Assembly (NCBI RefSeq): GCF_002632755.1
Contig: NZ_NJAK01000001.1
Coordinates: forward strand, 2,480,001 to 2,544,000
Length of the DNA: 64,000 nt
Source: Xenorhabdus ishibashii
GTDB taxonomy: Bacteria; Pseudomonadota; Gammaproteobacteria; Enterobacterales; Enterobacteriaceae
Reading direction: 5' to 3'
Shown here: positions 35,173 through 48,568 of the stretch, one piece after another
Layout: each line of letters opens with the position of its first letter
Position numbering within the stretch: the stretch's first letter is position 1
Notes under the pieces: generated by a model
Database searches by the model: none
What the model saw: the letters and a program-made list of their open reading frames with translations, nothing else
What the model was told of the DNA's origin: nothing
Made by a program: the position numbers and the translations under genes

Positions 35173-35490
35173 ATGCCAGCTCAATTTTCGATCAGAAAAA
35201 ATGTGATTGTGATCGCTAGATATTTATTAAGACTTTGTCTCAATTCTCATTCCGGCCTCTTTCCAACCCGAAAATCCTTTTTTAAACCGACGGGCTTGAG
35301 ACGATTCAGAGCACATGATGGCTGGGCTTTAGGGGATAGTATTTACATACAGGATATATTCGAAGTGAAAAATGAAGAGAAAATTATTCCAGATATTAGG
35401 CAGTTATTGGAAGATATTGAGACATTCTTTTCACTTTTAGATGGCAAAGATATATCTGACAGGAATCGATTTAGCATTATTCAGCTTTAA
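35173..35490 (+). other. Uncertain 105-codon frame, possible gene fragment
   Basis: The frame overlaps the beta-glucoside leader at its start and the trxB relic at its end. Its second half (from about 35280; GDSIYIQDIFEVKNEEKIIP and an acidic helical tail) looks protein-like, but no family is recognised and the first half does not. It may be the carboxy-terminal fragment of a lost gene or chance. Confidence 0.2.
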
Positions 35491-35819
35491 TTTATTTTGC
35501 AAAAAAACTGTATTCGGATTATGACCTATAGCCATAAAACAACCACTTATTAGGCTAATCCAGAAAATCAATTGAAACTATATGGTCATTAATGACTTCT
35601 GGAATAAACTCTTTCGCATGCTTATCCATTCTTGACATCAGTTCAGGGCCTGTTGTCCCTCCTGACCAATTCTCAATATCAGTGGTATTCATTAATTGCC
35701 CACCCAGTTTCAAACCGGAGACAAACTACAGGATAAAGACCTGCCCTGGCTGCATATATCGCAGCAGTATACCCAGCAGAACCAGTTCCTATAATTAATA
35801 CTTTCGCATAAACAGGCAT
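35440..35819 (-). pseudogene. Decayed thioredoxin reductase (TrxB-family) gene
   Basis: From ATG 35819, behind AAGGAG, the minus strand encodes [20 protein letters not shown] (FAD-binding loop). After about residue 33 a 1-nt shift near 35720 moves the match to another frame: [16 protein letters not shown] and PELMSRMDKHAKEF follow. From 35550 a further frame gives FMAIGHNPNTVFLQNKL, a match to the late part of TrxB. The central NADPH and Cys-x-x-Cys region is deleted, so no active enzyme can be made. It follows the thioredoxin gene by 94 bases, implying a former trxA-trxB pair divergent from the NRPS operon. Confidence 0.85.
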
Positions 35820-35913
35820 TAAATGCTCCTTTGTTTTACTAATTAAAAGCAAATTATGATATTGGGTTGGACTGTTAGGTAAGGCAGGCTCCTCAAATTT
35901 AACTCAACCTGAA

Positions 35914-36234
35914 CTACAAATGTTGAGAAACCATATTCTTAAATTGTGATAATGAAGCGACACCAACAAGAGAATCTACAGGTTGCCCATCTTTATATAC
36001 TAATGTCGTTGGTATGCTGCGAATGCCATATTTCATAGCGATATTATTGGCATCATCAATATTGATTTCCCCGAAAATAGCACTATCTTTCATATCAATC
36101 GATAATTGATTAAATGTTGGAGCTACCGCACGACACGGTCCACACCACGGTGCCCAGAATCTAACAACACAGATCCCTTTAGAACTGACTACACTACTAA
36201 AATTATCTTCGGTTAATTCAATTAATGTATTCAT
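35914..36234 (-). CDS. Thioredoxin (extra copy)
   Basis: A 106-residue thioredoxin with active site WAPWCGPC (Cys31, Cys34) and the cis-Pro in RSIPTTLVYKDG. It reduces protein or small-molecule disulfides using electrons from a thioredoxin reductase. It is not the housekeeping trxA locus (no rho neighbour). It is divergent from the biosynthetic operon and followed by the trxB relic. A role in disulfide chemistry of the nearby pathway is inference. Confidence 0.9.
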   Translation of the reverse strand: MNTLIELTEDNFSSVVSSKGICVVRFWAPWCGPCRAVAPTFNQLSIDMKDSAIFGEINIDDANNIAMKYGIRSIPTTLVYKDGQPVDSLVGVASLSQFKNMVSQHL

Positions 36235-37122
36235 ATTGAATCCTCAGTAAAAATTTTTAAGTTGCTAAAATACAGCTTATAAATGAAATGTGGGGGTATG
36301 CGCATGTATATTTGTTAACTTTGATATTGGAACACTCATTTTATGAATCCATGTAAAAGATAATTGCTAACTCAGAATACTCGAACACCCTTAATTCAAT
36401 TATTATATTGAATATTATAGTTAGATCAATAGATCTTTTCCTATCAGAAAGATAGGTATAGTCTATCAATTAATAACAATAAGTTATTGAAATACTTAAA
36501 ATAAATCACAAAAAATTTATTCATTCGATATTGGATAAACATAATGATAAAAAAATCAATCAGATAAATTCCGATTGATAACTTTAACCAGAGAAAAATC
36601 CAATGGAGGATCTGCTAATCATAAACACAATGATTTCATGTAATAACTATTAAAAAATAAAAAAATAACTCAATGATATGTTGCCTTAAAGTTATTAATT
36701 TGCCTACAGGAGATTAACAACTTGGTTATGCGTCAGGAATTATTATGCGACTGCCAATTTGAATTTGATCAGTATCCATATATTTCACATAACAATAATC
36801 GTTAATAAAATATTATTATTTGATATTACATTTAGTTATAAACATGTTATTTTTGCGTGAAAGCAAACCAGTCAATAAAACTAAACATCTTACTAAGATT
36901 AATGAGGCGTCTGAATATGCACTGTTTTTATTTTAAACTCACGAGTCAATATATTAATTTGATAGTAAATGATGTTTATTTTCACAAAAATAAACTGGTG
37001 AATTGTAAAAATATTCTTTGTTAAGAATTCCAACCTATTCCCAGCACTATTTTATTTCAAAGATAAAAAACAACCTCAGAAAAACATAAGTTAACTTATC
37101 AATCAAATACAAGGGATAATGC
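36235..37122. other. 888-base AT-rich divergent control region
   Basis: It separates the thioredoxin gene from the NRPS operon. About 75% AT; no convincing gene. It should carry both promoters; a long leader and silencing by H-NS-like proteins are plausible for such composition. A 25-codon frame at 36728-36805 is too weak to call. Confidence 0.55.
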
Positions 37123-46429: not shown

Positions 46430-47005
46430 ATGAAAAATGATGAAATAATTCCACAGATAAAACCTCGGATCTTAATTGGGGCAACCGGTTCAGTAGATAT
46501 CACCCTCCTCCCCAAATATCTTTCAGCAATTAAGGCGGCGTTCAACTGTACATTAACAGTATTGATGACAAACAATGCCACCACCTTTTTACCCGCCTCA
46601 ACCGTAGCTCTCTATGCCGATCGGATCATTAGCGGAGAGATGCCACACGATTGGCCAACAGACAAACCTTCACGCATTGTCGCGGATCATGACATTATGG
46701 CCATTTTACCTGCAACGGCTAACACGCTTGCAACTGCTGCTTGTGGTGGTGCAACCAATCGATTAACAACTGTGGTTCTGGCCTCCACATTTCCTGTGCT
46801 GTTTTTTCCAGTCATGGGACACGTGATGTGGGAAAAAAAAGCAACACGTCGCAATATCACCCAATTACGTGATGATGGCTACCACGTTATTGAACCCGTA
46901 TGGCACGAAAATTTTGATGTTTCACTACAACGAATGGTTGGGCATCCTTCATTACCGGATATTGAAACCGTTATTTCGCTACTGAAACAACATCTGCCAA
47001 AATAA
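46430..47005 (+). CDS. PPC-decarboxylase-like flavoprotein (HlmF-like)
   Basis: 191 residues of the HFCD family (EpiD, phosphopantothenoylcysteine decarboxylase). Visible are the FMN-binding start ILIGATGSVD, LPATANTLATAACGG (family PASANT motif) and PVMGHVMW, a variant of PxMNxxMW with Gly for Asn. HFCD enzymes oxidatively decarboxylate a carboxy-terminal or free cysteine to an ene-thiol, the expected chemistry for making the second ene-thiol of a dithiolopyrrolone. The Gly variant may reflect a different substrate. Confidence 0.9.
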   Translation: MKNDEIIPQIKPRILIGATGSVDITLLPKYLSAIKAAFNCTLTVLMTNNATTFLPASTVALYADRIISGEMPHDWPTDKPSRIVADHDIMAILPATANTLATAACGGATNRLTTVVLASTFPVLFFPVMGHVMWEKKATRRNITQLRDDGYHVIEPVWHENFDVSLQRMVGHPSLPDIETVISLLKQHLPK

Positions 47006-47028
47006 ATTCTGAGATTAATACAGTTGTG

Positions 47029-47093
47029 GAAGAGTACTCCGCCCCTTAATTGACAAAAAGCTATCCAACATGTGGACTGGATGGGTACTCTTC
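47029..47093. terminator. Long-loop inverted repeat after the biosynthetic operon
   Basis: GAAGAGTAC (47029-47037) and GTACTCTTC (47085-47093) pair exactly around a 47-base loop, 24 bases after the flavoprotein stop. It may mark the operon end. The remaining bases up to the transporter start show nothing else. Confidence 0.45.
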
Positions 47094-47296
47094 AAATTCT
47101 CCCCTGATATAGAGACATAAATTCCTCTTCTGTTTGCCTCTAAACTACATATCACTACAATAGGCTCTCTTTAAAAATTGCAGAATAAATATCTTTTAAT
47201 ATAGCATCCGTTTTATTTTCATCTATTTTTGTATCTGGCAAAGACATTGAAAATAATCACCTTAAATCCCATTTTATAACTATAAATCGGTAACTT

Positions 47297-48568
47297 ATGT
47301 CACAACATCACAATCGCCCATTAAATAAACAAGATTATAAAACGCTGTCCTTAGCGGCTTTAGGTGGCGCTCTGGAATTTTACGACTTTATTATTTTTGT
47401 CTTTTTTGCTGTTGCGCTTGGGGAACTCTTTTTCCCTGCGGATATACCTGAATGGCTCAGACAACTACAAACATTTGGTATTTTTGCTGCGGGTTATCTG
47501 GTTCGACCTTTAGGTGGGATAGTCATGGCTCATTTTGGCGATCTCATTGGGCGAAAGAAAATGTTTTCACTCAGCATATTGATGATGGCCGTACCAACAC
47601 TGGCCATCGGTATGTTGCCCACCTATGATGCTATAGGTATTGCTGCCCCTATCCTGCTGTTACTGATGCGGGTTATGCAGGGAGCGGCGATTGGTGGAGA
47701 AGTGCCCGGAGCCTGGGTTTTTGTAGCAGAGCATGTTCCCCATAAACGCATTGGACTTGCCTGTGGTGTTTTAACGGCAGGGTTGAGCTTGGGGATTTTA
47801 TTTGGTTCTCTCGTCGCAACTATTATTACTGCAATTTATTCCAGGCAAGAAGTCTTGGATTGGGCATGGCGCCTGCCATTTTTCTTAGGAGGCATTTTCG
47901 GTTTATGCGCCATGTACTTACGCCGTTGGCTGCATGAAACCCCTGTCTTCAAGGAAATGCAGGAACGCAAAGCATTGTCAGAAGAGTTACCACTAAAAAC
48001 TATCGTCTTTAATCACAAACGCGCCATCTCTATTTCCATGCTGCTGACATGGCTGCTTTCCGCAGGAATTGTCGTTGTTATCTTGATGACACCAACCTAT
48101 ATGCAGACAGTCTTTAATCTGGAACAATCACTAACGTTAAAAGCAAACAGTCTGGCGATCATCTCATTGGCGATTGGCTGTGTTTCTGTAGGATATTTAT
48201 GCGATAAATGGGGTGCAGGTATCGTGCTGATTATCGGTTGCATTCTATTAGCTGCCACAACCTGGTTTTTCTACCACAATATCAGCCATGAACCGCTTAA
48301 ACTATTTAGAGCTTATTCCCTCGCAGGCCTGGCTGTGGGTGTGATTGGCGCAACTCCTTTTGTCATGGTAAAAAGCTATCCGCCAGAAGTCAGGTTCAGT
48401 GGCATTTCATTTTCATATAATTTGGCTTATGCCATTTTTGGTGGACTGACGCCGATATTCGTCACTTTGCTACTGACCTACACCTCACTGGCACCGGCCT
48501 ACTACATGATGACCTTATCGGTTGTTGGCCTTTTCTTAGGGTTTTACTTGCGGAAAAAATCGATATGA
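47297..48568 (+). CDS. MFS transporter of the metabolite:H+ symporter family
   Basis: 423 residues, 12 membrane segments. GALEFYDFIIFVFFA, RPLGGIVMAHFGDLIGRKK (MFS loop 2-3 motif) and LRRWLHETPVF are hallmarks of the ProP/KgtP/ShiA-type MHS family. It sits 291 bases beyond the operon, so it may be transcribed separately. In holomycin-type loci an MFS protein (HlmH) exports product, and this is the natural candidate, but MHS proteins are usually importers, so an unrelated substrate is possible. Confidence 0.85.
   Translation: MSQHHNRPLNKQDYKTLSLAALGGALEFYDFIIFVFFAVALGELFFPADIPEWLRQLQTFGIFAAGYLVRPLGGIVMAHFGDLIGRKKMFSLSILMMAVPTLAIGMLPTYDAIGIAAPILLLLMRVMQGAAIGGEVPGAWVFVAEHVPHKRIGLACGVLTAGLSLGILFGSLVATIITAIYSRQEVLDWAWRLPFFLGGIFGLCAMYLRRWLHETPVFKEMQERKALSEELPLKTIVFNHKRAISISMLLTWLLSAGIVVVILMTPTYMQTVFNLEQSLTLKANSLAIISLAIGCVSVGYLCDKWGAGIVLIIGCILLAATTWFFYHNISHEPLKLFRAYSLAGLAVGVIGATPFVMVKSYPPEVRFSGISFSYNLAYAIFGGLTPIFVTLLLTYTSLAPAYYMMTLSVVGLFLGFYLRKKSI

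What the first reader, a model, noticed from the sequence alone, without database searches (positions are those of the whole stretch)
35440..48568. Complete-looking dithiolopyrrolone (xenorhabdin/holomycin-type) biosynthetic locus
Seen: collinear genes for Cy-A-PCP NRPS with a full cysteine code, GMC oxidoreductase, type II thioesterase, acyl-CoA dehydrogenase, GNAT acyltransferase, truncated globin, HFCD flavoprotein and then an MFS transporter, with start/stop overlaps among the first genes. Known (from memory): the hlm locus of Streptomyces clavuligerus has this same enzyme set, with HlmE-D-C-B-A and G, F, H equivalents. Inference: the locus makes an N-acylated ene-disulfide antibiotic such as a xenorhabdin.
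Basis: partly seen in the sequence, partly recalled or inferred. Interest (0 to 1): 0.85.

Follow-up and report, generated by a model that had tools for sequence, protein, structure and literature searches.

The report
Xenorhabdin antibiotic operon with phosphopantetheine hydrolase
This is the known kind of gene cluster with which insect-killing Xenorhabdus bacteria make sulfur-rich xenorhabdin antibiotics; the overlooked part is a gene inside it that looks like an enzyme for stripping the working arm off the antibiotic assembly line, whose purpose in any bacterium is still unknown.

Summary
In detail: 37123-47005 carries genes for Cy-A-PCP NRPS, GMC oxidase, thioesterase, acyl-CoA dehydrogenase, GNAT, globin and HFCD flavoprotein, in the order of the thiomarinol hol locus (40-71% identity). 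The X. doucetiae locus, from a species with a published xenorhabdin cluster, is 85-94% identical. The core is thus an ordinary xenorhabdin-type operon, a new member of a known kind.

The parts
37123..40542 (+). Cy-A-PCP nonribosomal peptide synthetase (HlmE/HolA/Hom7 type), code DLYNLSLIWK
   Evidence: 53% to pTML1 HolA, 86% to X. doucetiae
40539..42188 (+). GMC-family flavin oxidoreductase (HlmD/HolB type)
   Evidence: 58% to HolB
42178..42927 (+). type II thioesterase (HlmC/HolC type)
   Evidence: 42% to HolC
42930..44066 (+). acyl-CoA dehydrogenase-like enzyme (HlmB/HolD type)
   Evidence: 62% to HolD
44097..44972 (+). GNAT N-acyltransferase (HlmA/HolE type); missing at the locus in 3 of 15 Xenorhabdus genomes that have the rest
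   Evidence: 40% to HolE
45030..45509 (+). group II truncated globin (HlmG/HolF type); start probably 45045
   Evidence: 68% to HolF
45553..46395 (+).
46430..47005 (+). HFCD/PPC-decarboxylase-like flavoprotein (HlmF/HolG type)
   Evidence: 71% to HolG
47297..48568 (+). MFS gene, symporter-like; in 29 of 30 genomes of the genus, a flank and not part of the cluster
35914..36234 (-). thioredoxin (WCGPC), divergent; beside the locus in 7 of 15 cluster genomes; possible redox accessory
33580..35013 (-). PTS transporter gene: left flank of the site

Best explanation
The operon 37123-47005 makes xenorhabdins, that is N-acylated holothin (dithiolopyrrolone) antibiotics. The NRPS activates cysteine and builds a Cys-Cys unit on its single carrier domain; the acyl-CoA dehydrogenase-like, GMC and HFCD flavoenzymes oxidise and decarboxylate it to the bicyclic ene-dithiol, which closes to the disulfide without a dedicated HlmI; the GNAT enzyme adds a fatty acyl group. 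Inside the operon sits a PptH-type hydrolase, of the kind that removes 4'-phosphopantetheine from carrier proteins. Its most likely job is to clear carrier domains whose arm is blocked by stalled, misloaded or disulfide-trapped cysteinyl intermediates, so that a phosphopantetheinyl transferase can re-arm them. Shown by comparison: enzyme families, gene order, PptH fold and active site, co-inheritance, selection. Inferred: product, order of reactions, PptH activity here, and the reset role. Separate confidences: dithiolopyrrolone operon 0.97; xenorhabdin-type acyl product 0.9; PptH-type activity of 45553-46395 about 0.85; reset of the NRPS carrier domain as its role about 0.4.
Against: No chemistry is shown for this strain. 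Y. ruckeri (the species makes holomycin by the review PMC3826145; the genome searched is ATCC 29473), P. luteoviolacea, Alkalimonas and G014 carry the core but gave no PptH-type match (0 of 4; no positive control inside that call, though the same model found G000). So PptH seems not needed for the core chemistry. All 30 Xenorhabdus genomes match AcpH, another Ppt hydrolase family, one of them (G007) only in part and with a stop. Of 12 relatives examined, 3 show neither a PPTase nor a synthase gene in the stretch seen (CL7, Mut1, Niveispirillum). Activity on this NRPS is untested.
Confidence: 0.85

Rival explanations
1. Release model: PptH cuts the carrier-bound intermediate off as a 4'-phosphopantetheine thioester, a small substrate like 4'-phosphopantothenoyl-cysteine, for which the neighbouring HFCD (PPC-decarboxylase-like) enzyme is suited.
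For: PptH and HFCD genes are neighbours, 34 bp apart; HFCD matches the PPC-decarboxylase family, whose classical substrate carries the phosphopantothenoyl group (established knowledge).
Against: HFCD is also in loci whose genomes gave no PptH-type match, Y. ruckeri included.
Confidence: 0.12
2. Shut-off or self-protection model: PptH turns the NRPS (and other synthases) back to the inactive apo form when production must stop, or repairs carrier proteins damaged by the reactive ene-dithiol product.
For: PptH opposes PPTases (PMC8557913). The gene lies in the operon and no full-length copy was found without the locus in 30 genomes of the genus. No HlmI-type gene found in the window.
Against: An enzyme made together with the synthase is an odd off-switch. 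Overlaps partly with the reset model and cannot be split from it by sequence.
Confidence: 0.25
3. Acyl-donor model: PptH frees acyl-phosphopantetheine from fatty acyl-ACP, which is rebuilt to acyl-CoA for the GNAT acyltransferase.
For: HlmA uses acyl-CoA, and xenorhabdins 1-3 carry C6 to C8 acyl chains (PMC3826145).
Against: Three loci have lost GNAT yet keep an intact pptH. Pseudoalteromonas SANK 73390 makes longer-chain xenorhabdins (PMC3826145), and its pTML1 hol locus has no pptH match.
Confidence: 0.05
4. Different Cy-A-PCP pathway, such as a thiazoline siderophore.
For: Cy-A(Cys)-PCP occurs in such pathways (established knowledge); a TonB-receptor-like ORF lies at 29578-31869 (label from reading the sequence, not from a family search).
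Against: Globin, HFCD, GMC, ACAD and GNAT in hol order; the TonB-like gene lies beyond the PTS/bgl genes, which border the site in cluster-free genomes.
Confidence: 0.02

Closest known systems
Xenorhabdin gene cluster of Xenorhabdus doucetiae (L115)
   Same: Same eight genes in the same order, PptH-type gene included; 85-94% protein identity. Xenorhabdins from promoter-exchange mutants of X. doucetiae (PMC6972681, one passage seen); 12 Xenorhabdus clusters linked to xenorhabdin by iPRESTO (PMC9946207, passages seen).
   Different: The thioredoxin gene was not found beside the X. doucetiae locus. I have not seen how the original paper (Bode 2015) names the metallophosphoesterase.
hol locus of Pseudoalteromonas plasmid pTML1 (thiomarinol)
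   Same: Seven core genes, same order and strand.
   Different: No PptH-type match in the stretch; linked to the pseudomonic acid pathway (PMC3826145).
Holomycin clusters of Photobacterium (HlmY)
   Same: A metallophosphoesterase 'HlmY' listed between HlmF and HlmG (PMC9456166, passages seen); all Photobacterium PNP-5 clusters of that study have one (PMC11350110, passages seen). Two Photobacterium PptH-type proteins fall on the same side of a 100/100 branch as the window's.
   Different: 49-51% identical to the window's protein. The paper also lists a regulator HlmX and an MFS HlmH; I did not have the Photobacterium locus DNA and did not compare them.
hlm locus of Streptomyces clavuligerus
   Same: Equivalents of HlmE, D, C, B, A, G, F, by way of hol and hom (identities in the table of PMC3826145).
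   Different: No HlmI-type gene found (stand-in queries); MFS not of the S. finlayi cluster's kind. The hlm sequences themselves were not compared. The word phosphoesterase does not occur in that review.
PptH (Rv2795c) of Mycobacterium tuberculosis, 6unc
   Same: Fold, 42-43% identity, active-site residues.
   Different: There it opposes the PPTase PptT, Rv2794c; here it stands inside an NRPS operon, with no PPTase among the operon's genes.

Membership tests
Dithiolopyrrolone (holothin) biosynthetic locus | Cy-A-PCP NRPS with cysteine code | tested here: met
   same code (9) or one-residue variant (3) in 12 of 12 compared loci; Cy motif departs in G014 and two Streptomyces loci, not here
Dithiolopyrrolone (holothin) biosynthetic locus | GMC oxidase, TE, ACAD, globin and HFCD homologues clustered with the NRPS | tested here: met
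Dithiolopyrrolone (holothin) biosynthetic locus | production of an ene-disulfide product that depends on the NRPS | not testable with these tools
   no chemistry here; reported for relatives in the literature
Xenorhabdin cluster | orthology and order equal to the X. doucetiae cluster | tested here: met
Xenorhabdin cluster | GNAT acyltransferase for C6-C8 acyl groups | tested here: inconclusive
   GNAT gene present and open; acyl preference not testable
hlm-type cluster with HlmH exporter | HlmH-like drug exporter in the cluster | tested here: not met
   no match to the S. finlayi MFS used as stand-in; symporter-like, in 29 of 30 genomes. HlmH itself was not compared
hlm-type cluster with HlmI | GliT/HlmI-type dithiol oxidase | tested here: not met
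   window; genome: one 26% hit, E 1.3e-12; queries were the Streptomyces clusters' flavoproteins taken as HlmI-type, not HlmI itself
PptH-type phosphopantetheinyl hydrolase | sequence and fold of PptH well above other metallophosphoesterases | tested here: met
PptH-type phosphopantetheinyl hydrolase | active-site residues C225, H246, H248 of PptH | tested here: met
   C211, H232, H234
PptH-type phosphopantetheinyl hydrolase | hydrolysis of Ppt from holo-carrier protein | not testable with these tools
   needs an enzyme assay

The most novel reading that the evidence does not exclude
The PptH-type enzyme is a dedicated working part of dithiolopyrrolone assembly in Xenorhabdus, Algicola and Photobacterium: it releases the Cys-Cys-derived intermediate from the carrier domain as a phosphopantetheine conjugate, which the neighbouring PPC-decarboxylase-like flavoprotein then takes. 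That would be a new way of off-loading an assembly line and the first physiological role for a PptH-type hydrolase.
Probability: 0.12. Interest if true: 0.85.

Novelty: new member of a known kind. Interest (0 to 1): 0.48.

Why it matters
The antibiotic locus itself is an expected Xenorhabdus cluster. What is useful is a likely name for a gene that the papers I could see call only a metallophosphoesterase (HlmY). Phosphopantetheinyl hydrolase activity has been known since 1967 with no known physiological function, and the PptH type was described as limited to mycobacteria (PMC8557913). Here one is tied by operon, inheritance and selection to a single small NRPS with one carrier domain, in a host that can be manipulated. 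That makes the old question 'what is the hydrolase for?' directly testable. Two Streptomyces plasmids in which a PptH-type gene overlaps a synthase gene suggest that the answer may be general.

Tried and rejected
MFS as HlmH equivalent: rejected. Thiazoline siderophore: rejected on gene content. Acyl-donor role of PptH: disfavoured, since three GNAT-less loci keep it. HlmI-type oxidase in the window or genome: none close, with stand-in queries. RNA families at 28000-52000: none at gathering score. A class sample (1 of 369 genomes, the window's own) and an order sample (2 of 394 at high score, G000 and G010, plus four weak hits at 1e-13 to 1e-17) suggested that PptH was confined to Xenorhabdus; the protein search corrected this, as Photobacterium and Algicola have it. 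A try at reaching Photobacterium through the family of G793 found nothing in 40 genomes and had no positive control; that family was a guess. That Photobacterium HlmY is PptH-type rests on protein names plus the papers, not on locus DNA. Linkage of PptH and ACAD in Algicola and in one unnamed source is inferred from equal longest-contig lengths (377349 and 20919). In the literature searches (20 of 205 listed; 40 of 133 listed; 8 of 9 listed) no listed paper is seen to join PptH to holomycin or xenorhabdin; the likeliest places were not seen (Bode 2015; Zhang 2021, not held; Su 2024 preprint, known only from a reference list). A 105-aa ORF at 35173-35490 matched no family. On the second reading of this report the novel case was narrowed to the release model and its odds set to those of the same rival (0.12; first written as 0.2 for a broader wording).
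Full report
What was checked. The window is G000:C1:2480001-2544000 of a 3.86 Mb genome. Its nearest named relatives by the acyl-CoA dehydrogenase are Xenorhabdus thuongxuanensis (97%), X. khoisanae (94%), X. indica (92%) and X. hominickii (91%), so the organism is taken to be a Xenorhabdus. The NRPS has Cy motif DLMFVDIHS, PCP motif GGDS and code DLYNLSLIWK; in 12 compared loci the code is the same (9) or differs at one residue (3), while the Cy motif departs in G014, S. 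finlayi and CB02980 (the mapping of code positions and its cysteine meaning are recalled).

What it is. Against the thiomarinol plasmid pTML1 the proteins match in the same order: NRPS 53%, GMC 58%, TE 42%, ACAD 62%, GNAT 40%, globin 68%, HFCD 71%. Against the Streptomyces finlayi cluster six of them match at 35-62%, in a different order and without a GNAT match. In the genus, 16 of 30 genomes have the ACAD (148 genomes searched in all). In 15 of these the locus is of the window's type, with NRPS identity 76-95% in the 14 others and GNAT missing in three; the sixteenth, G014, has a distant locus (NRPS 52%) that groups with Yersinia ruckeri, Serratia, Pantoea and Photorhabdus in the ACAD tree. 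Its proteins are 85-94% identical to the window's. Xenorhabdins from promoter-exchange mutants of that species are reported in PMC6972681 (one passage seen), which suggests that N-methyl and iso-fatty acid parts come from outside the operon; PMC9946207 (passages seen) links 12 Xenorhabdus clusters to xenorhabdin. The locus is therefore a member of a known kind.

Site and history. In 10 of the 14 stretches taken around the MFS gene of genomes without this locus type (13 with no locus, plus G014), the PTS and beta-glucosidase genes lie on the other side of the gap; two stretches end at a contig end and two show neither gene. The locus thus sits between PTS and MFS. Remnants remain there in three genomes: NRPS residues 113-173 in G029, HFCD 102-191 in G002, and HFCD plus MPE pieces in G009. 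An early arrival in the genus with repeated loss is the simplest reading (inference). In no other of the 30 genomes do the MFS and pdxJ genes lie side by side (positions), so the right border in the window looks rearranged.

The MFS gene is in 29 of 30 genomes and matches the metabolite:H+ symporter subfamily best, below that model's cut-off; it has no match to the S. finlayi cluster MFS. No Y. ruckeri locus ORF of 120 aa or more outside the seven core genes matches the window at E 1e-5. No match to the Streptomyces flavoproteins that I take as HlmI-type lies in the window, and the genome has one 26% hit. The review PMC3826145 (outline, passages and part of section 5.2 seen) says that Y. ruckeri and pTML1 also lack HlmI.

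Distribution. Within the genus a full-length gene is in 15 of 15 genomes with this locus type, 0 of 1 with the other type and 0 of 14 without a locus; G009 has a 44-residue remnant with a stop. Y. ruckeri, P. luteoviolacea, Alkalimonas and G014 have no match (0 of 4, no positive control in that call). Protein searches scored 7998 and 6092 of 8000 candidates at E 1e-30 or better; of the 120 listed each time, the named ones are Xenorhabdus, Algicola, Photobacterium or actinobacteria. In a tree of 26 sequences that I picked, the four Xenorhabdus, one Algicola, two Photobacterium and two unnamed proteins lie on one side of a branch with support 100/100; if the root lies on the other side, this fits one entry into dithiolopyrrolone loci. 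PMC9456166 lists a metallophosphoesterase, HlmY, between HlmF and HlmG in Photobacterium holomycin clusters and says that P. arenosum has the cluster; PMC11350110 says all its Photobacterium PNP-5 clusters have one (passages seen).

Selection. Over 14 related loci (L107-L119 and L121; L120, the second copy in G023, and L122 left out) and the window, median pairwise dN/dS is 0.10 for the PptH gene (105 of 105 pairs used), against 0.055-0.152 for the other eight genes, where up to 5 pairs were dropped as too close or too far; the only stop seen is one near the end of TE in L119. GNAT is missing at the locus in G022, G011 and G028, the last with a remnant of about 40 residues and a stop, at different gap lengths (124, 51, 196 bp); G022 has a 28% GNAT homologue elsewhere. 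In these three, PptH against the nearest relative gives 0.079, 0.155 and 0.072, though part of that divergence may predate the GNAT loss.

Context of relatives. Of 12 loci examined, 7 have a 4'-phosphopantetheinyl transferase gene next to the PptH homologue (S. clavuligerus, S. exfoliatus, RerS4, NBC_00335, S. fungicidicus, Tsukamurella, CB02980), two overlap the end of a synthase gene (W1SF4, NBC_01732), and three show neither in the 2.5-5 kb seen on each side (CL7, Mut1, Niveispirillum). The plasmid gene tables are incomplete by the tool's own account. Eleven of the 12 were picked from 39 plasmid records with a match; the twelfth is the CB02980 scaffold, where the pair lies about 4 kb from the ACAD of a dithiolopyrrolone-type locus.

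Mechanism. Cysteine loading, Cys-Cys formation and oxidation follow published pathway ideas (PMC3826145; PMC10134970, first of four parts seen, where a Cys-Cys disulfide ring compound was found with the NRPS DtpB). I propose that PptH clears carrier domains trapped with such species. That step is inference. The core chemistry seems not to need PptH, since Y. ruckeri makes holomycin (review) and its searched genome shows none. AcpH matches are in 30 of 30 Xenorhabdus genomes, one partial, so a general Ppt hydrolase is not what the genus lacked.

Verdict. An ordinary, well-supported xenorhabdin operon with an unexplained but nameable extra enzyme that makes a long-open question testable.

Noticed in passing
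L107, L114, L121 (X. thuongxuanensis, X. indica, G028): The GNAT acyltransferase gene is missing from three of 15 xenorhabdin loci that are otherwise open, with different gap lengths and one short remnant; their product may be unacylated or acylated in trans.
   Followed up: partly
L122 (G014) 4185-13137: One Xenorhabdus genome has a second type of dithiolopyrrolone locus, like that of Yersinia ruckeri and Serratia, at another chromosomal place and without the PptH-type gene.
   Followed up: partly
window 35914-36234 (-): A canonical thioredoxin gene stands divergent to the NRPS gene; found beside the locus in 7 of 15 cluster genomes and in none of the 14 stretches around the MFS gene of other genomes.
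   Followed up: partly
L125, L127, L132: Decayed remnants of the cluster remain between the PTS and MFS genes in three Xenorhabdus genomes without the cluster.
   Followed up: partly
window 48568-50288: In no other of the 30 genus genomes are the MFS flank and acpS-pdxJ side by side, so a rearrangement breakpoint probably lies here.
   Followed up: no
   Followed up: no
L152, L153: On two Streptomyces plasmids a PptH-type gene overlaps the end of an NRPS or PKS-like gene, with no PPTase gene in the stretch shown.
   Followed up: no
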